Source: Deltaproteobacteria bacterium
GTDB lineage: Bacteria; Desulfobacterota; Desulfarculia; Adiutricales; JAGVGV01
NCBI GenBank assembly: GCA_015233515.1
Contig: JADFXS010000090.1
Location: forward strand, 1-9,655
DNA length: 9,655 nucleotides
Direction: 5' to 3'
This document shows, piece by piece, positions 1 to 9,655 of this stretch. The position numbers were made by a program, and so were the translations under genes. Position 1 is the first letter of the stretch, and each line of letters starts with the position of its first letter. The notes below the pieces were generated by a model, which searched no databases, was not told the origin of the DNA, and was given only the letters and a program-made list of their open reading frames with translations.

Positions 1-45
1 ACCCATATCAACGTCGCCTGGCCGGGCCAACCGCGGCCGATCTGA
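1..45 (+). CDS. C-terminal tail of an upstream reading frame (partial)
   Basis: Frame 1 is open from the window edge and reads THINVAWPGQPRPI before a TGA at 43-45. Codon third positions are mostly G or C, which looks coding. The stop lies two bases before the ATG of the next gene, as expected for tightly coupled genes. Too little remains to assign a family. The frame of the following gene is also open back to the window edge, so this tail could instead belong to a frameshifted longer version of that gene. Confidence is low because only 14 codons are visible. Confidence 0.35.
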   Translation, partial: THINVAWPGQPRPI

Positions 46-47
46 GG

Positions 48-599
48 ATGGTCGATAAACCAGCCGATACGGAAAAGCAGGCCGTAGTCAAAGTCAAGGC
101 CACGGTGCTTCTCAATCGTGACGGCAAGGACGAACAAGTGCTTCCGTCCCATGAATTCAAATCCGGAGATAAAGTTAAGATCGTTTATTCCACTAACATA
201 GATTGCTATGTTTACTGGCTGTCCGAAGGCACTTCCGGTGATCACTACATGCTTTTCCCCAACGAAAAAGTCGGCATGGAAAACTGGGTCAAGAAAAACG
301 AAGAAAGCATGATCCCGGTAAAGGGCAACTTCAAATTCGACGAGAAGAAGGGCACGGAAAAGATTCTCCTGGTCATGTCTCCGGAAAAAATCCCCGAACT
401 GGATGAAGCCGCCAAGGTAGCGGCGGTCAAGGGCGGCACGGTTAAAAGTATTCAAGACCAGCAGGAGCAGAAACGCAAGTCTCGCGACTTGGTCTTTGAA
501 GAAGAAGACAACAAAAGCTCCGGCGTGTCCACCCAATCTCAGGTCAGCAAGGATATCAAACAACCCTTTGTCGTGGCTTTTGAATTGAAGCACAATTAA
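48..599 (+). CDS. DUF4384-domain protein carrying a KRxSRDLVFEE loop motif
   Basis: This 183-residue protein has the features of a DUF4384 domain, a beta-rich module often attached to or encoded near bacterial caspase-like peptidases. Residues about 31-115 show the characteristic run: a strand after 'FKSGDKVKI', a 'YVYWLS' strand, the 'LFPNE' turn (69-73), and 'TEKILLVMSPEKIP' (103-116). A charged linker (about 117-170) contains KRKSRDLVFEEE at 142-153, and a last strand 'PFVVAFEL' (173-180) probably closes the fold. The same motif recurs in the TPR-CHAT protein downstream. No signal peptide is visible from this ATG, which is odd because DUF4384 proteins are usually exported and the complete neighbours here all carry export signals. 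GAGG abuts the ATG with no spacer, so the start is uncertain and the protein may begin upstream of the window or after a frameshift. The domain call is from pattern recognition, not a profile search. Confidence 0.72.
   Translation: MVDKPADTEKQAVVKVKATVLLNRDGKDEQVLPSHEFKSGDKVKIVYSTNIDCYVYWLSEGTSGDHYMLFPNEKVGMENWVKKNEESMIPVKGNFKFDEKKGTEKILLVMSPEKIPELDEAAKVAAVKGGTVKSIQDQQEQKRKSRDLVFEEEDNKSSGVSTQSQVSKDIKQPFVVAFELKHN
471..503 (+). other. Motif KRKSRDLVFEE, copy 1 (protein-level repeat)
   Basis: Residues 142-152 of the DUF4384 protein. Nine of the 11 positions are identical to copy 2 in the CHAT protein and one more is a Val/Ile exchange. The codons differ at many synonymous sites (Ser TCT versus AGC, Arg CGC versus CGG, Asp GAC versus GAT, Phe TTT versus TTC). 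The similarity is therefore at the peptide level and is not a recent DNA duplication. It sits in a charged linker just before the final predicted strand. Confidence 0.8.
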
Positions 600-768
600 C
601 CTGGTTTGGCTGAATGTGAAAGGCCTGGCGCATAAATCTGCGCGGACCTATTGAACTTTTGTCCCCGGATGCGAACCCCGTGGAAAAATCCCGGACTTGC
701 TACCAATCTTAATGATAGCCCGGGCGGGTTAGGCGTCATCTTCCGCTCCGGATTAAAATTTGTGACAA

Positions 769-805
769 ACTGTCCGGTCGCCAGACCGGGCAGTATTAAA
801 TTTTT
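769..805 (+). terminator. Rho-independent terminator after the DUF4384 gene
   Basis: Bases 769-779 pair with 784-794 to give an 11-bp stem (one T-G wobble) closed by a GCCA loop. An AT-rich stretch ATTAAATTTTT follows. The 170 bases between the DUF4384 stop and this hairpin (600-768) show no convincing gene. The AT-rich DNA after it, including TATTAT at 815-820, may hold the promoter of the next gene, but no clear -35 element is visible. Confidence 0.6.
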
Positions 806-846
806 ACTCCAAAATATTATAAAAAATTAAACCCCAAGGAGGCACA

Positions 847-1881
847 ATGAAGAAATTCTATCGAAAAAATCGCAAATTACTGTTGGTTCTGTCTCTAATC
901 CTCCTGGCTGCGGCCATTGTCTGGGCCGCCGCGGAATTATCCGGCCAAGCCAATTCCTTGGCTCAGGACGCCGGCAGTAACTCAGCCGGCATGGAAATGA
1001 CGACCCTGAACACGGTCAAACCACCGGCTAAAACCAAGGATTCCCCCCAACCGCCGGCCTGTGATTGGGCCAAGGAACGACAAATTAAAGGCGCATTGGA
1101 TAGAAACGATGCCTCCTACAAGCAGTTGACCACGAAGGCTAAAAGTGAAATGTCCGGAACCGGCAAGGTGTCGCCGGCCACCCAGTCGGCGCTTATGTCT
1201 TCAGCTCGGGAATTCAAAAGTTTGTGCGATCAGTATGCCACCATGTGGGATGCATGCAAATGCTACACTCGTGGTAAAACCGCTCGCGCCACCGGCAACT
1301 CCCGAATAAAAAGCGCGGAAGTCCTGGCCGCCGGTTTGGATCAAAACAAGATGAACCAAATGCAATCCGCTCAGACTGATATGAAAAACGCCCGTCGTGA
1401 ATACGTCCAATCCGCGGTTGACGGCGGCGAAATCAGCGACGCGGACAAAGCCGATATCAAATCGAACGTCGTCCCGCAGATTCAGACCCTTTTGGGTCAG
1501 AGTGAATCCTTGGTTACCGGCGTAACGAGACTGTTAGGCGATATTCAAGGTGGAATCACCAGCGGCGTCAGTCAAGCGACTACCAGCGGCATCAGCAGCC
1601 TGACCGATATGGCCAAAAGCGCGACCACCGGCGGCGGAACAACCTCGGCCAGCGCCGCGGCCAGCTCCGCCAAGACCAAAGTGGCCGCCGCAAGCACGAC
1701 CTCATTACTCCAACCGGTTCAGGCCTTGCTGTCCTTGGCCACCTCTCTGTTTGACGGAGTAAAATCGCTTTTCTCCGATGCCCAGTCACTGATCTCCGGC
1801 GGTGCAGCCGGTGCAGCGGCCGGATTAGTCACGGGTGACAAAAAGATGAGCCCCTGCTTTGTAGGAGCTTCCGAGGATTAA
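847..1881 (+). CDS. Exported or membrane-anchored Ala/Ser/Thr-rich protein, unknown family
   Basis: This 344-residue protein was not recognised. AAGGAGG at 836-842, four bases before the ATG, supports the start. Residues 1-6 are basic, and about 10-29 form a hydrophobic segment that is either an uncleaved anchor or a signal peptide ending near 'VWAAA'. The middle (about 70-215) is charged and probably helical, with cysteines in 'PPACDW', 'LCDQY' and 'DACKC' and a fifth in 'SPCF' near the C terminus; disulphides are plausible in the periplasm. Residues about 235-280 are low-complexity Gly/Ser/Thr/Ala, with a short internal repeat (TSGVS...TSGIS). About 285-330 is amphipathic to hydrophobic and ends in a glycine-zipper-like 'GGAAGAAAG'. 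It lies directly upstream of the CHAT gene, separated by 207 bases holding two hairpins, so co-expression is possible but not certain. The gene is real by ribosome site, length and composition; no function is assigned. Confidence 0.85.
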   Translation: MKKFYRKNRKLLLVLSLILLAAAIVWAAAELSGQANSLAQDAGSNSAGMEMTTLNTVKPPAKTKDSPQPPACDWAKERQIKGALDRNDASYKQLTTKAKSEMSGTGKVSPATQSALMSSAREFKSLCDQYATMWDACKCYTRGKTARATGNSRIKSAEVLAAGLDQNKMNQMQSAQTDMKNARREYVQSAVDGGEISDADKADIKSNVVPQIQTLLGQSESLVTGVTRLLGDIQGGITSGVSQATTSGISSLTDMAKSATTGGGTTSASAAASSAKTKVAAASTTSLLQPVQALLSLATSLFDGVKSLFSDAQSLISGGAAGAAAGLVTGDKKMSPCFVGASED

Positions 1882-1890
1882 AACTTCAGC

Positions 1891-1931
1891 GCCAGGCCCG
1901 TGGGATGATTGTTCAGCCCGCGGGCCTTGGC
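1891..1931 (+). terminator. Intergenic stem-loop after the 847-1881 gene
   Basis: Bases 1891-1904 pair with 1917-1931 to form about 14 pairs with one wobble and one bulged base, around a 12-base loop. It sits 10 bases after the stop codon, where a terminator would be. The downstream sequence CGGCCTAAAATATT lacks a T-tract, so it may act as a 3'-end stabilising or attenuating hairpin, or be Rho-associated, rather than a classical terminator. Confidence 0.4.
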
Positions 1932-1951
1932 CGGCCTAAAATATTAAAAAT

Positions 1952-1982
1952 CCTCGCGGCAAACCGCGGGGAATGCGCTCGC
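1952..1982 (+). repeat. REP-like palindromic element, copy 1
   Basis: An 8-bp stem (1952-1959 with 1964-1971, one T-G wobble) and a CAAA loop are followed directly by AATGCGCTCGC at 1972-1982. A near-identical copy in the same orientation occurs at 5491-5521, on the other side of the CHAT gene. Small GC-rich hairpins with a conserved tail of this kind resemble repetitive extragenic palindromes, some of which are mobilised by REP-associated tyrosine transposases. No such transposase is in this window. Confidence 0.65.
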
Positions 1983-2088
1983 CGGCATGTTTATTGACCG
2001 TTTCTCCCTTACGGCCGCCCGGACACATCGGACGGCCATTACCTCAATAACTCATAATGGTTCATCTCGTTATCAAAGGAGGACACCT

Positions 2089-5000
2089 GTGCGCTACTTA
2101 AAGGCCATCTTTGCTTCCCTGCTGGTATCGGTTCTGATCGTCGGTGTCGCGTTCAGTGAGTCAGTGGACGATTACCTTAATAAAGCCAACATGTTATTCA
2201 AAAACAAAGATTACGAAGGCACTATAACCGAATTACGCAAAGCTCTTGAAATTTTAAAAAAAGACAATCCGGCCGCGGCGCAGCAGGTGCAGATGAATAT
2301 CGGCCTTAATTATGTCCGCCTGGAAAAATATCAGGAAGCCATTCAGGAACTGGAAGCGGCTTTAGCCCTCAATAAAAAACCGGACCCCAAAATTGATCTG
2401 AAACTAAACCAGATACTGGCCACCGCCCACTATAATCTGGGCCATTACGCCCTGCGGGCCGCCATTCTCGAAGGTTTATTCAAGAGAATCAAGGATATTG
2501 ATGATGAAACCAAAGCCGACATGCTCGCGCAACTGGGCGATGCTTATCGGCGAAACGAAATCCACTCCAAAGCCATTCAATATTACGGTGAAGCCGCCAA
2601 GCTTTTCGAAAAATTGAAAAAACAAGACCGCCAAGCCCTGGTCCTCACCGCCATGGGCTTGTCCCAATCCAAGTTGGGAGACTTTCCCGGAGCGACCAAA
2701 AGCTTGAATATGGCACTGGAACTGGCCAAAAATCTGAACAACCCCCTGAACACCGCGGAAACTTACAGTAATTTAGGTATAGTTCAATGGGATCAAGGAG
2801 AATATGCCAAAGCCCTGGAGCTGGTAAATCTAGCCAAGGAAGTGGAATCCAAAGGCAATCTCAAACGCAACCTGGGCGCTGATTTCAACAACGAAGGTCT
2901 GATTTATAAAAGCGTCGGCCTGTATCCCAAGGCCATGGAAGCCATCAACCAAGCCATCAAGATCGCTCAGGAAATTAAAGATCGCCAATCCGAGGCCATT
3001 GCCCTGTCCAACCGGGCCTTGCTCTATCGGATCCTGGGAAAAAATGCCGATGCGCTCAAGGACTATCAAGCTGCTCTCAAAATTTATGACGACGTGAAGT
3101 TTTTGGAAGGGACCGCCAGTTGCCGGCTGGGTCTGGGCAAGCTATATGAAGTCCATGAGCACGACTTTACTAAAGCCAATGAGGCTTACCAAAAAGCCCT
3201 GGAAATGTATAAACAGCTGGGCAACCTGACGTACCAGGCGGAAACTCTCAATCAAATCGGCCGGGTCTTGAAAAAAAGCATTGATCCCAAACGCGCCAGC
3301 CGGGATTTGATCTTCGAAGAAGGTGAACCGAAACTTCTGGCCGTTAAACCGGAGGAAGCCGCGGAAAAATCCACGGCGGCGTACAAGGAAGCCCTGGAGC
3401 TAGCCAAAAAAGTCAACAAACGAGAAGCCATCTGGAGTGCGCAACAAGGCCTGGGCTATGCCTTGAAGTCTCAAGGCCAGGAAGAAGAAGCCTGTAAATA
3501 TTATCAGGAGGCCGTGAATATGGTGGTCGGCATCCGAGGCGGCACCGATTCAGACCTTTTAGGTAACTACCTTAACGATAAGGAAGACCTGTTCACTGAA
3601 GCCATCGAACTGTGCCGGATTCTCTTCGAAAAAACCAAAAAACCCGAATACCAGCGTTTGATGATGCAATATGAAGAGATCTACAAAAACGAAGTCATGA
3701 AAACGGCCATGAACGGGGCCAAATTGGAATTCCAGGACAAAAACAAGGCCGGCATATTCGACCAGATACAGAAAACCCTGGCCGAAAAAGACAAACTGGA
3801 TCAACTGTCCGCCAAACAACAAAACCTCCTGGCCAAGGCTCCGGCGTCGGAATCGGAAAAAATCGAACAATCCCAACTGAAAAAAGATGTGGAAACGGAA
3901 AATAAACAGGTAACGGTCAGAGCCAAAAAACTGGAAGGAACTCTTGAAGAACTCTTCAATAAATGGAAAAAACAGTATCCCAATGACGCCGGTCTGTTCG
4001 ACAGTTCCGCCCGGGTGGACCTGACCTCCATCCAAAAAACCCTGAAAGACGATCAGGCTTTGATTCAATATTTCCCACTCAACGATAAATTGAGCATTCT
4101 TTGTGTGACCAAAACAGAAATCAAGGGCGCCGATGTCGCCATCGCCTATGAGGATTTGGCCAGCCTGATCCGGGACCAATTCACCTATGAGAATATTGAA
4201 TTATACGGTCATGGCAAAACCAAATTGACTGAAGAACAGTCTTTTGAAAATTGCAACAAAGTTTTGAACAAGCTATATACCCTGCTCCTGGCCCCGGTGG
4301 AACGCGAAATCGCCGAAAAAAATAAATTGATTATTGTTCCCAGTAAATACATCGGCTATGTTCCTTTTTCCGCCCTGGTCACCAAATTTGACGGTAAAGA
4401 ACCTCACTACCTGGTCCAAGACAAAACAGTAACCTACATCCGTTTGTCCTTCTTCGACCAAGTCTTTGCCAAACGTAAAAAAATAGACTTCGCCAAAAAC
4501 AGATTGATGGCCGTGGGTAATCCGACTCACGCCTTTTTAAAGGCCGGTTTACCCGATCTACCCGGCGCGGAAAAGGAAATCCAAGGCGCCATGAACGCGG
4601 CTAAAAAAATGGATAGCGCCGAGGCCTTGTATCGGGAAGAAGCCACGGAAACGACTTGGCATCAACAACCTTATACAGTTTTTTATTTTGCCACTCATGG
4701 GGTGCCTTTCGCGGAGATCATGTATGACCGCAAGGCCACTATCGGCCCGGCCTTGGTCAAAATGAAAAAAAGGATGGAGGCCGAAACCGATCCGACCAAA
4801 AAGCAGCAGCTGGAAGCTAAAGTCAAAGGACTGGAAGAATTTGAAAAATTTTGCGATCAAACCTTCAAGTCCAAGTCGCCCATGAATGGTTTCCTATACC
4901 TTTCTTACAGCGGGAAGGAAGAAGATAACGGCGTCCTGACCCTCAAGAAAATCATGGAAATGCCGGAGTCTGTTTTCAAGGAAGCCAATTTGGCCATTCT

Positions 5001-5373
5001 GTCCGCCTGCAATACGGCCGTGACATATTCCCCAAAAGTAGATGATAAAATCCGCAAGGAAAGCGAATCATCGGAAATAGACCGGGAATTGGCCGCGGCC
5101 GGTTTTACGCCGGGCGTAGATCAGGTCTGCCTGTCCGATACATTCATGAAACGTAACTTTAATAGCGTCATGGGCACATTATGGTTCGCCGACGACCAGG
5201 CCACCGGGTTTATCATCGCCAAATTCTTCGAAGGACTGGCCGACAAACTGCCGTCGGACGCTTTGCGGGCCGCCCAACTGGCGTATTTGGAAAAGCCCCC
5301 CCTGGCTCCGGATTACACCAAAGTCCCGAAACATCCCTATTACTGGGCCGTAAGCGCCGTATTCGGGGATTAG
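2089..5373 (+). CDS. Exported TPR-CHAT caspase-like protease
   Basis: This 1094-residue protein is read as a CHAT (caspase/separase-like cysteine peptidase) effector on a TPR scaffold. The GTG start at 2089 is chosen because AAAGGAGG lies at 2075-2082, six bases upstream; the frame stays open further 5' but that extension lacks support. Residues 1-23 form a signal peptide (basic MRYLK, then a hydrophobic core ending 'GVAFS'). About 11 TPR units follow (roughly 25-484), and the tenth is interrupted by a loop carrying KRASRDLIFEE (401-411). A helical, coiled-coil-like linker (about 520-635) leads to the CHAT domain (about 640-1094). Catalytic His870 is in 'FATHG' and Cys974 in 'LSACNTA'. Other landmarks are 'LPGAEKEI', 'GTLWFADDQATG' and a terminal 'HPYYWAVSAVFGD'. 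The domain contains extra segments between His and Cys (about 872-933) and after Cys (about 977-1004). Both catalytic residues are present, so activity is expected. Substrates are unknown; the DUF4384 protein is a candidate partner. Confidence 0.92.
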   Translation: MRYLKAIFASLLVSVLIVGVAFSESVDDYLNKANMLFKNKDYEGTITELRKALEILKKDNPAAAQQVQMNIGLNYVRLEKYQEAIQELEAALALNKKPDPKIDLKLNQILATAHYNLGHYALRAAILEGLFKRIKDIDDETKADMLAQLGDAYRRNEIHSKAIQYYGEAAKLFEKLKKQDRQALVLTAMGLSQSKLGDFPGATKSLNMALELAKNLNNPLNTAETYSNLGIVQWDQGEYAKALELVNLAKEVESKGNLKRNLGADFNNEGLIYKSVGLYPKAMEAINQAIKIAQEIKDRQSEAIALSNRALLYRILGKNADALKDYQAALKIYDDVKFLEGTASCRLGLGKLYEVHEHDFTKANEAYQKALEMYKQLGNLTYQAETLNQIGRVLKKSIDPKRASRDLIFEEGEPKLLAVKPEEAAEKSTAAYKEALELAKKVNKREAIWSAQQGLGYALKSQGQEEEACKYYQEAVNMVVGIRGGTDSDLLGNYLNDKEDLFTEAIELCRILFEKTKKPEYQRLMMQYEEIYKNEVMKTAMNGAKLEFQDKNKAGIFDQIQKTLAEKDKLDQLSAKQQNLLAKAPASESEKIEQSQLKKDVETENKQVTVRAKKLEGTLEELFNKWKKQYPNDAGLFDSSARVDLTSIQKTLKDDQALIQYFPLNDKLSILCVTKTEIKGADVAIAYEDLASLIRDQFTYENIELYGHGKTKLTEEQSFENCNKVLNKLYTLLLAPVEREIAEKNKLIIVPSKYIGYVPFSALVTKFDGKEPHYLVQDKTVTYIRLSFFDQVFAKRKKIDFAKNRLMAVGNPTHAFLKAGLPDLPGAEKEIQGAMNAAKKMDSAEALYREEATETTWHQQPYTVFYFATHGVPFAEIMYDRKATIGPALVKMKKRMEAETDPTKKQQLEAKVKGLEEFEKFCDQTFKSKSPMNGFLYLSYSGKEEDNGVLTLKKIMEMPESVFKEANLAILSACNTAVTYSPKVDDKIRKESESSEIDRELAAAGFTPGVDQVCLSDTFMKRNFNSVMGTLWFADDQATGFIIAKFFEGLADKLPSDALRAAQLAYLEKPPLAPDYTKVPKHPYYWAVSAVFGD
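3289..3321 (+). other. Motif KRASRDLIFEE, copy 2 (loop in the TPR array)
   Basis: Residues 401-411 of the CHAT protein. It sits in a roughly 25-residue insertion between the two helices of a TPR unit (after 'IGRVLKKSI' and before 'AEKSTAAYKEALELA'), so it is probably an exposed loop. It matches the motif in the DUF4384 protein at 471-503. Confidence 0.8.
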
Positions 5374-7116: not shown

Positions 7117-7806
7117 ATGAAAAGAATATTAAGCCTAGTATCATGTTCCGGGCTGGTTTTGGCGCTTTCCCTCTTTACGGCTTGCGAGTACTCCATAATC
7201 CCGGAAATTTTCATCAATGACATCATAACCGTGGCCGACGGCAAAGAAAAAGTGGTCACCGCCAAAGCCAAAATCAGAATCGCCATGCCATCGGACAAGG
7301 AGTGCGCTGAAAAGCAAGAGAAACTTCTGGGGATTCTCGGCACATTCTTTAATAATGTCAAAAACCCCAAATGTGGGACCGAGCAATTCAACAATTTTTT
7401 TGAAGTGGACGTGGACCTGCCCATGATGGCCGTGAGCAAGGCCCCAGCGGAAATCCCGGGAAAAGGCATGACGGCTATAGGTGTATCCGAGCAATCCGAC
7501 GGCAAGAATAAATTCGTGGTAATCAGCCTGATCCTGGATCGTAATAATTTCAAATCTGTCCTGGAAAATGAATTTTTTGTTTCCTTGGGTCCTAAGGACT
7601 TGACCCTGGCCCTGACGGTGAACAACGATTTATCCGGTGAGGCGACTATTCTGGTTTACAACGCTTTTGTCAGCGGCAAGCCTGTCCCCATGCCCACTTA
7701 CCAGACTCTGGCCCGTCGCGATAAAAAAAATATCGTCCTGGCGGATGTGATGAGCCAATACATTCAGGAAACCGGTTTTGCCGAAGTTCTTCTGCTACGT
7801 AGGTAA
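7117..7806 (+). CDS. Predicted lipoprotein of unknown function
   Basis: This 229-residue protein has a type II signal peptide: MKR, a hydrophobic core, then 'LSLFTAC' with Cys23 as the lipidated residue. Phe at -3 is unusual but tolerable. Glu at +2 is not the classical Asp retention signal, so outer-membrane sorting would be expected if E. coli rules apply. The mature part has alternating strands and helices, with conserved-looking segments 'SDKECAEKQEKLLGIL', 'NNDLSGEATILVYNAFVSG' and 'LARRDKKNIVLADVM'. These recall small uncharacterised lipoproteins of the DUF7424 type, but this is memory of the pattern and has not been searched. Two mature cysteines, in 'KECAE' and 'PKCGT', could form a disulphide. 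AAAGGA at 7104-7109 supports the ATG. The gene lies 30 bases after the LprI-like gene and 31 bases before the next, so an operon is likely. Confidence 0.8.
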   Translation: MKRILSLVSCSGLVLALSLFTACEYSIIPEIFINDIITVADGKEKVVTAKAKIRIAMPSDKECAEKQEKLLGILGTFFNNVKNPKCGTEQFNNFFEVDVDLPMMAVSKAPAEIPGKGMTAIGVSEQSDGKNKFVVISLILDRNNFKSVLENEFFVSLGPKDLTLALTVNNDLSGEATILVYNAFVSGKPVPMPTYQTLARRDKKNIVLADVMSQYIQETGFAEVLLLRR

Positions 7807-8583: not shown

Positions 8584-9655
8584 TTATTTACTGAACGGAC
8601 TCATGAACTTATTAAGCAGCGGTTGGGCAGGGGCCAAATTATCCTTGAAATCCTTGGATATAGCCACTTCCTTGGCCTTGACTTCCTCTTGACGGGCCAA
8701 GATTCTTTTCAACCCGTCATCCACGGACTTATATTCCGGTCCTAGCTGTTCGGCAAAGCTCGGCAACAAGGATTTCAGGTGTTCCGTCTGGACAAAGGTA
8801 TTGTTGAGTCTCATCCGCTCGACTCGGAACCGTTGAACCAGTCCCAAAACATTAGCGGCTTCCATATGGGTTTGAATGACCAGCTTCGCTTTTTCCGCGG
8901 CATCGGCCGGTCCCAGGGCCGCCAGTTTTTCATCCAGTTTTTTCAGCACTTCCGCCCGATCTTGAGGCATGGCCTTGATCTTATCCAAAGTGGCCAACCG
9001 GGGATCCACATCTTTTTCCAGCTTGGCTATGATTTCCGGGAGATTGGTTTTCATTCCTTCGATCCGCTTATTGCGGAAAGCTTTCCATTCATCCATGGTT
9101 GCGGCGGTCAGCGGTTGCGGAGTTAAAACCGCGCCGGGTTTGTCGGCGATTACTTCCTGGCCCGGGCTTAAGTCCACCTGACTGGTTTTTTCTCCGGCTT
9201 GATCAGTGGAAACCGCCACCTGCCCCGCGGTCACCGACAAGACCGTGGCTCCGTCTTCAGCCACGCCGATGGAAAAATCCGTCCCGCGGACTCCGGCCAC
9301 CATGGTCGGAGTTATAGCCACGTCATCACCGCGCAGTTTGTTAAGCTTGGCGACAACTCTCCCGAAAAATAAAGACAAGGAAAATTTGCTTTGCTCTTCC
9401 GGAATCAGCTCGTTGATTTCTATCCGCGTGGCTTGGAAGATTTCAAACTTGGAGCCATCGTCCAGAACGAGAACGGCATGACCGCCTTGAGCGCTTTCTA
9501 TAGCTTGGTTTGGTTCCAGTCGATCACCTTTCTTCAAGGTTATCCGTTTACCGTCCTTGAAAATCAATTCCACCCGGCCTTCCACCGAATCCACTACAGC
9601 GGAAATAGCTTGAGCCCAAGCGGGTTGAGCATGGATCGACAAAGACCACCAACAT
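8584..9655 (-). CDS. FecR-domain exported protein with a helical C-terminal half (5' end outside window)
   Basis: At least 357 residues read on the minus strand from the window edge to a TAA at 8584-8586. The frame stays open past the TTG at 9642, and 'CWWSLSIHAQPAWAQA' is the end of a signal peptide, so the true start lies beyond 9655. The mature protein begins about 'ISAVVDSVEGRVE' and contains a FecR domain: 'KKGDRLEPNQAIESAQGGHAVLVLDDGSKFEI' split over two strands, then 'VAGVRGTDFSIGV' (about 9265-9303) and 'VLSVTAGQVAVS'. FecR domains are periplasmic beta structures found in anti-sigma regulators and, without a membrane segment, in free envelope proteins. Here there is no transmembrane segment after the start and no sigma factor nearby. 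The second half is long and charged, probably helical ('MDEWKAFRNKRIEGMK' onward), with no recognised family. It is convergent with the plus-strand run, so it is transcribed separately. Confidence 0.85.
   Translation of the reverse strand, partial: CWWSLSIHAQPAWAQAISAVVDSVEGRVELIFKDGKRITLKKGDRLEPNQAIESAQGGHAVLVLDDGSKFEIFQATRIEINELIPEEQSKFSLSLFFGRVVAKLNKLRGDDVAITPTMVAGVRGTDFSIGVAEDGATVLSVTAGQVAVSTDQAGEKTSQVDLSPGQEVIADKPGAVLTPQPLTAATMDEWKAFRNKRIEGMKTNLPEIIAKLEKDVDPRLATLDKIKAMPQDRAEVLKKLDEKLAALGPADAAEKAKLVIQTHMEAANVLGLVQRFRVERMRLNNTFVQTEHLKSLLPSFAEQLGPEYKSVDDGLKRILARQEEVKAKEVAISKDFKDNLAPAQPLLNKFMSPFSK

What the first reader, a model, noticed from the sequence alone, without database searches (positions are those of the whole stretch)
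471..3321. Shared peptide motif KRxSRDL[VI]FEE in the DUF4384 protein and the TPR-CHAT protease
Seen directly: residues 142-152 of the DUF4384 protein and 401-411 of the CHAT protein match at 9 of 11 positions plus a Val/Ile exchange, with different synonymous codons including TCT versus AGC for Ser. In both proteins the motif falls in a loop interrupting an otherwise regular fold (before the last DUF4384 strand; between TPR helices). Known: CHAT peptidases are related to separases and caspases, which cut in exposed loops after basic or acidic residues. Inference: it could be a substrate or self-processing site, a docking peptide, or a strand-addition motif bridging two proteins of one system.
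Basis: partly seen in the sequence, partly recalled or inferred. Interest (0 to 1): 0.72.

Follow-up and report, generated by a model that had tools for sequence, protein, structure and literature searches.

The report
Private recognition peptide of CHAT system
A secreted-looking bacterial protease and the small protein encoded beside it carry the same short peptide, kept nearly unchanged in relatives while its surroundings drift, so both are probably read by one partner, most likely the protease itself.

Summary
RDLx[FY], mostly [TS]RDL[VI]F[ED][ED], is in the TPR insert of 40 of 42 CHAT relatives and in all 101 retrieved DUF4384 proteins, the window's own included; 89 have it twice (strict form 25 of 42 and 97 of 101). 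Full-length DUF4384 proteins carry one copy after the apparent signal peptide and one before the last strands; the window lacks the first, its contig starting inside the gene. In 16 genomes all 44 strict matches lie at this locus; reversed pattern 0. None of 61 remoter CHAT loci and none of 30 other DUF4384 loci has it. A second CHAT lineage carries it elsewhere, near the mature N-terminus (10 of 10 closest relatives), beside motif-bearing DUF4384 genes in the 3 loci seen. AlphaFold leaves the CHAT copy disordered. So this is a system-private linear motif, not chance. Most likely it is a docking peptide read by the CHAT protease, whose own copy acts in cis, as separase's NxLxΦE loop does. A scissile site, strand exchange, or reading by a linked HERxH protein stay open; nothing was tested at the bench.

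The parts
1..599 (+). DUF4384 protein, 5' end cut off by the window edge (reading frame open from base 3)
   Evidence: PF14326 E 2.1e-12, 47.4 bits against cut-off 27; 101 proteins, itself included
471..503 (+). motif copy KRKSRDLVFEE (the C-terminal copy of the DUF4384 protein)
   Evidence: R, D, L invariant in 68 aligned sequences
847..1881 (+). gene B, conserved neighbour of unknown family with an N-terminal hydrophobic segment; no motif in it
   Evidence: homologues in 17 of the 18 lineage-1 loci plus the window; aligned as A6; no Pfam hit; not found in three lineage-2 genomes
2089..5373 (+). secreted-looking TPR-CHAT protein, GTG start after AAAGGAGG, 1094 aa
   Evidence: CHAT PF12770 E 8.7e-35, TPR_12 E 5e-40; AlphaFold mean pLDDT 87.5
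3289..3321 (+). motif copy KRASRDLIFEE, in a disordered insert between two TPR helices
   Evidence: residues 405-411 have pLDDT < 50, helices 380-398 and 421-442 on either side; R405 D406 L407 invariant in 37 sequences
4696..4698 (+). His870 codon, putative catalytic
   Evidence: invariant in A1
5008..5010 (+). Cys974 codon, putative catalytic (LSACNT)
   Evidence: invariant in A1

Best explanation
The motif [TSN]-R-D-L-[VIL]-[FY]-[ED]-[ED] is the private recognition peptide of a small secreted protease system. SHOWN by sequence: it occurs in both proteins, usually twice around the DUF4384 domain and once in a flexible part of the TPR-CHAT protease; it is conserved, private to the locus, and found in two CHAT lineages at different places. 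INFERRED: the CHAT protease reads it, in a groove between its TPR arm and protease domain. In trans the copies in DUF4384 dock that protein on the protease as substrate, inhibitor or scaffold. In cis the protease's own copy, in a disordered insert or tail, competes for the same groove and holds the enzyme back until the partner or a signal displaces it. This is how the NxLxΦE peptide works in human separase, where the substrate Scc1, the inhibitor securin and separase's own autoinhibitory loop AIL1 all carry it.
For: Conservation in both families. Privacy: 44 of 44 strict and 52 of 58 relaxed matches in 16 genomes lie at the locus. A full-length CHAT profile hit 11 genomes in two surveys, and all 11 carry the motif in the CHAT gene; ten of these are genomes already behind L001-L018, the new one is G532, whose CHAT gene is broken. 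Other CHAT and DUF4384 loci lack it: 0 of 61, 0 of 30. The CHAT copy and the first DUF4384 copy are modelled with low confidence, in acidic, variable sequence. In lineage 2 it sits near the mature N-terminus (10 of 10 closest relatives, 0 of the 89 other hits): position is free, the peptide is not. CHAT and DUF4384 copies are more alike within than between genomes (0.745 against 0.681, 31 pairs; partial Mantel controlling for the CHAT body, 27 pairs, r 0.19, P 0.014 and r 0.17, P 0.039); all three copies are NRD in L017 and GTRD in L015. His/Cys pair invariant. Separase and Csx29 (8eey_B) stand at ranks 3 and 4 of the Foldseek list for CHAT, though with low TM-scores and among many TPR proteins. 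The separase parallel: PMC10317155.
Against: No binding or cleavage data; no complex could be modelled. The two CHAT lineages are far apart, so a groove for one peptide would have had to persist or arise twice. The likeness to NxLxΦE is only L-x-Φ-[ED], and in separase AIL1 that peptide is helical, whereas the DUF4384 C-terminal copy is modelled as a strand. L006 has a CHAT copy (RDLVFENE) but no DUF4384 gene in its 11.8 kb and no strict match anywhere in its genome.
Confidence: 0.42

Rival explanations
1. Cleavage site: the CHAT protease cuts within the motif, in itself (maturation) and on both sides of the DUF4384 domain (release of the domain).
For: Flexible acidic linkers suit protease sites. 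Human separase cuts itself after Arg in a disordered insert of its TPR-like domain, as it cuts its substrates after Arg (PMC10317155); Csx29 cuts Csx30 in a flexible loop (PMC10028731). In long DUF4384 proteins (L011, L012, L018, L113) the two copies bracket the domain and would release it.
Against: In most DUF4384 proteins (R at residue 26-34 in 89 of 99 that begin with Met) and in lineage-2 CHAT (residue 37) the copy lies a few residues after the apparent signal peptide, where a cut would only trim the end. No counterpart of separase's Arg-binding Asp could be assigned, so a cut after Arg has no support from the pocket.
Confidence: 0.27
2. Strand exchange: the DUF4384 domain accepts the RDLVFE peptide as an added strand, so DUF4384 proteins chain together and bind the CHAT protein through its copy.
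Against: 30 other DUF4384 loci have no such peptide, so it is no general property of the fold; all Z are under 8; no complex was modelled.
Confidence: 0.15
3. The reader is the linked HERxH protein (gene D), a possible zinc peptidase that would process both motif proteins.
For: Gene D occurs in 8 of 288 family genomes, all of them genomes with motif groups, and in 17 of 23 motif genomes, with both CHAT lineages.
Against: Not found in 6 of the 23: in G278 the motif locus has flanks on both sides, though the genome may be incomplete; the other five have fragmented loci. The first His of HERxH is Gln in L005. No known family matches it.
Confidence: 0.1
4. No shared function: the peptide was copied from one gene into the other, or is a relic of descent.
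For: In L128 and L129 the flanks match too (NKPGTRDLV in both proteins), as a copying event would give.
Against: Neutral copies would drift; here the core is kept with different codons in many genomes and at different positions.
Confidence: 0.03

Closest known systems
Human separase with securin and Scc1 (NxLxΦE motif, auto-inhibitory loops, autocleavage in insert 2)
   Same: TPR-like arm plus clan CD protease; disordered inserts out of the TPR arm; one short motif shared by protease loop, substrate and inhibitor (PMC10317155); Foldseek match of low TM-score
   Different: Bacterial and apparently secreted; the motif reads RDL[VI]F[ED]; partner is a DUF4384 protein; no evidence yet of inhibition or cleavage
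Csx29-Csx30 of type III-E CRISPR (Craspase, TPR-CHAT)
   Same: TPR-CHAT protease with a dedicated partner protein
   Different: For Csx30, alanine changes showed no residue essential for cleavage, though deleting M427 stopped it (PMC10028731); here a peptide is nearly invariant. These proteins have apparent signal peptides. A CRISPR link was not specifically searched for
DUF4384 domains on bacterial caspase homologues (orthocaspases)
   Same: DUF4384 with a clan CD peptidase (PMC7475262; PMC6426788)
   Different: There it is fused to caspase-like proteins; here it is a separate protein beside CHAT and carries the motif

Membership tests
TPR-CHAT protease (PF12770) | CHAT domain over the curated cut-off | tested here: met
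   E 8.7e-35, 121 bits against 24
TPR-CHAT protease (PF12770) | His/Cys catalytic pair | tested here: met
   His870 and Cys974 invariant in 37 sequences; activity not tested
TPR-CHAT protease (PF12770) | N-terminal TPR arm | tested here: met
   TPR_12 E 5e-40, helical pairs in the model
DUF4384 (PF14326) | Pfam match over cut-off | tested here: met
   47.4 bits against 27
Separase | Asp in the S1 pocket that binds P1 Arg (41 residues after the catalytic Cys in human) | tested here: inconclusive
   Cys2029 and Asp2070 from PMC10317155; 41 after Cys974 is Leu1015, nearest conserved acids are D1011 (invariant) and D1017 (invariant in A1, 90% or more in A5); loop lengths differ, no structural alignment made
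Separase | cleavage of substrates and of itself | not testable with these tools
   needs protein
Csx29 / Craspase | Cas7-11 partner in a type III-E CRISPR locus | not tested
   not searched for; neighbours seen are others
Anti-phage defence system in PADLOC | match to a defence protein model | tested here: inconclusive
   only a general TPR model for the window CHAT and a weak BovA match (E 3.8e-5) for the lineage-2 CHAT, of 5 proteins scanned

The most novel reading that the evidence does not exclude
A bacterial counterpart of the separase control circuit: a secreted TPR-CHAT protease whose flexible insert (lineage 1) or tail (lineage 2) carries the same recognition peptide as its partner, so that cis inhibition and trans engagement compete for one groove, reached in two CHAT lineages by placing the same peptide at different positions.
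Probability: 0.3. Interest if true: 0.86.

Novelty: new variant of a known kind. Interest (0 to 1): 0.68.

Why it matters
To my knowledge (recalled) natural partners and recognition rules are known for few bacterial CHAT proteases. Here sequence alone gives a partner, the exact peptide, and a natural rearrangement of it, so reading by the protease can be tested with one peptide and two mutants. If it works as separase does, it shows a shared way of controlling clan CD proteases in bacteria and eukaryotes.

Tried and rejected
Chance match: rejected. General export or sorting tag: rejected as main reading, because in 16 genomes no strict match lies outside the locus; the relaxed pattern gave 6 of 58 outside, two of them reading Ser in place of Arg.

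Generic feature of DUF4384 or of CHAT: rejected. 37 of 148 genomes of the phylum have a DUF4384 match at E <= 0.001, yet none of the 30 loci fetched had the motif (30 of 65 listed places); 0 of 61 other CHAT loci. Single matches elsewhere look like background with some excess: in 395 genomes 36 of 49 matches lay outside the loci, against 21 for the reversed pattern by my count. I fetched 4 of these 36: two show one and the same unrelated peptide context (L116, L117), one a reverse-strand frame (L114), one no frame of 90 aa or more with the motif (L115). In the 288-genome survey three genomes had single matches (L130, L131 in long frames without the CHAT signature, L135 reading WRDFVYEED), and in a 37-genome survey one (L136, no such frame).

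Gene B as the common reader: weakened, not found in three lineage-2 genomes. Arginine-specific pocket by homology to separase: inconclusive; a mapping through separase sequence that I recalled was considered and not used. Sequence search of the CHAT domain against solved structures gave only a weak TPR-CHAT match (7zoq_A, E 0.04). Mobile element: no phage record and one weak, partial plasmid match for the DUF4384 protein. DUF4384 fold: no Foldseek match at E <= 0.001.

Results against my reading: the strict form [TS]RDL[VI]F[ED][ED] holds in 25 of 42 CHAT and 97 of 101 DUF4384 proteins only; the looser RDLx[FY] in 40 and 101. P0120 and P0121 lack R-D (GALVFEEE is left). L014 and L118 CHAT have variant ends (RDLTFTD, RDLIFES). 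L006 shows a CHAT copy without any strict match in its genome and no DUF4384 gene nearby. The lists were drawn by shared five-residue words, and one search used a region holding the motif, which favours carriers; the profile surveys rest on alignments of those hits, so they lessen this bias but do not remove it. R, D, L counts are fixed by the search expression, so invariance is cited from the alignments.

Print: no paper held 'RDLVFE' or 'DUF4384' together with 'CHAT domain'; one search found none; one search listed 15 of 25 papers, none of the 15 holding 'CHAT domain'. The library holds part of the literature. Papers seen: PMC10317155 section 4 and passages; PMC10028731, PMC7475262, PMC6426788 passages; all others search listings only.
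Full report
WHAT IS IN THE WINDOW. The left end is a DUF4384 protein whose 5' end is cut off, then gene B (847-1881), then a TPR-CHAT protein (GTG 2089 to 5373), then an OmpA protein and others. KRKSRDLVFEE (471-503) and KRASRDLIFEE (3289-3321) are as reported. Shuffles of one protein never reached 9 of 11 (300 tries).

CONSERVATION. The DUF4384 search gave 101 proteins, the window's own included; 89 have two copies of RDLx[FY], 2 have three and 10 have one, among these the window's own and several short or odd sequences. The strict form [TS]RDL[VI]F[ED][ED] is in 97. The first copy follows the apparent signal peptide (read by eye; R at residue 26-34 in 89 of 99 proteins beginning with Met); the second precedes the last strands. 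R, D and L of the second copy and D and L of the first are invariant in 68 aligned sequences, R of the first 90% or more. For CHAT, 52 proteins were found. I treated the first 42 as the family (P0102-P0143, the window's own included); the last 10 are remote (21-36% identity over parts). 40 of the 42 have RDLx[FY] in the TPR insert, 25 the strict form; P0120 and P0121 keep only LVFEEE. Columns before the first DUF4384 copy average 0.28 identity against 0.92 for the best eight columns of the motif; in CHAT the contrast is smaller (0.66 before, 0.53 after, 0.81 in the motif).

PRIVACY. The genome scan gave 79 loci. In L001-L018 every CHAT gene has the motif, L014 as the variant TRDLTFTD. DUF4384 genes were seen in 16 of these 18 loci, and a motif copy in each of the 16; L016 also holds a short broken-looking DUF4384 frame without it. 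L002 begins inside the operon. L006 has no DUF4384 gene in 11.8 kb. L019-L079, remoter CHAT proteins, gave no motif. In 16 of the 18 genomes, searched whole, all 44 strict matches were at the locus, reversed pattern 0; a looser pattern gave 58, of which 6 lay elsewhere, reversed 1. The other two: the genome of L003 (G594) has 3 matches, all in DUF4384 genes; that of L006 has none in the strict form, its CHAT copy reading RDLVFENE.

In 395 genomes of the phylum, two or more matches on one contig occurred only in G001, G008, G012 and G278, and the CHAT profile at E <= 1e-60 found G001, G008 and G012 only. In 288 genomes of one family, 12 had groups of matches: 8 had lineage-1 CHAT, 2 had lineage-2 CHAT, and in 2 (G500, G547) the contig ends just after the second copy. 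All 11 genomes hit by the CHAT profile in these two surveys have the motif in the CHAT gene; ten of them are genomes of L001-L018, the eleventh, G532, has a broken CHAT gene.

A SECOND LINEAGE. G278 (L113) has a long DUF4384 protein with two copies beside a different TPR-CHAT protein, with GTRDLVYEED near its N-terminus. Its search gave 99 proteins: the 10 closest, 46-81% identical, all carry the motif with R at residue 37, and none of the other 89 has RDL[VI][FY]E. So two CHAT lineages use one peptide at different places.

NEIGHBOURS. By all-against-all comparison of 20 loci (18, L113 and the window), gene B is in 18 and gene D in 14. Gene D (HERxH...EEW, aligned) was found in 17 of 23 motif genomes and in 8 of 288 family genomes, all of them with motif groups. 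It was missing from G278. Gene B was not found in three lineage-2 genomes.

COVARIATION. In 31 gene pairs the CHAT copy is closer to its own genome's DUF4384 copies (0.745) than to others (0.681; 0 of 20,000 permutations as high, no kinship control). 14 of these pairs were matched by equal contig length. In 27 pairs (the window and lineage 2 left out) the partial Mantel with the CHAT body held constant gave r 0.19, P 0.014 (first copy) and r 0.17, P 0.039 (second); against the closest relative the own copy won 12, tied 10, lost 5. This is weak support.

MECHANISM. Shown: a conserved, private, position-free peptide in two partners. Inferred: recognition by the CHAT protease. In human separase NxLxΦE is carried by Scc1, securin and the AIL1 loop, binds near the active site, and removal of AIL1 raises activity (PMC10317155). 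RDL[VI][FY][ED] fits the L-x-Φ-E part; this is a likeness, not a test of descent. I put docking ahead of cutting because many copies lie almost at the apparent mature N-terminus.

MEMBERSHIP AND NOVELTY. The protease is a member of the CHAT family by domain and residue pair. It works perhaps like separase; separase membership is not claimed. I found no report of the motif.

Noticed in passing
L001:6823-7671, L007:14026-14985 and 11 other loci (alignment A4): Gene D: a secreted-looking protein with (H/Q)ERxH and a later EEW, no Pfam match over cut-off and no NCBIfam match in the members scanned, found in 8 of 288 genomes of one family, all with the motif system.
   Followed up: partly
window 847-1881: Gene B: conserved partner of unknown family, N-terminal hydrophobic segment, serine/glycine-rich C-terminal half; lineage 1 only so far as tested.
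   Followed up: partly
L007:8310-8903 and ten other loci: Gene E: about 170 aa, upstream of the DUF4384 gene, no Pfam match in the two members scanned.
   Followed up: no
window 1-47: The frame upstream of ATG 48 does not match the signal peptide and first motif copy that homologues have; contig edge or assembly error likely.
   Followed up: partly
L012:6727-8037, L018:7258-8544, L113:8092-9294, L011:15008-16231: Long DUF4384 proteins with an extra N-terminal domain (RLNFxLTNLT...) in which the two motif copies bracket the DUF4384 domain.
   Followed up: partly
L006:6953-10390: A CHAT gene with the motif (RDLVFENE) in a MAG labelled Azoarcus, without a DUF4384 gene nearby and without any strict match in the genome.
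   Followed up: partly
P0096, P0097: DUF4384 proteins that run into an unrelated C-terminal part (PF10369) in place of the second motif copy.
   Followed up: no
window 7117-7806 and 8584-9642: A DUF7424 protein, and a FecR-domain protein on the - strand, downstream of the system; relation unknown.
   Followed up: no
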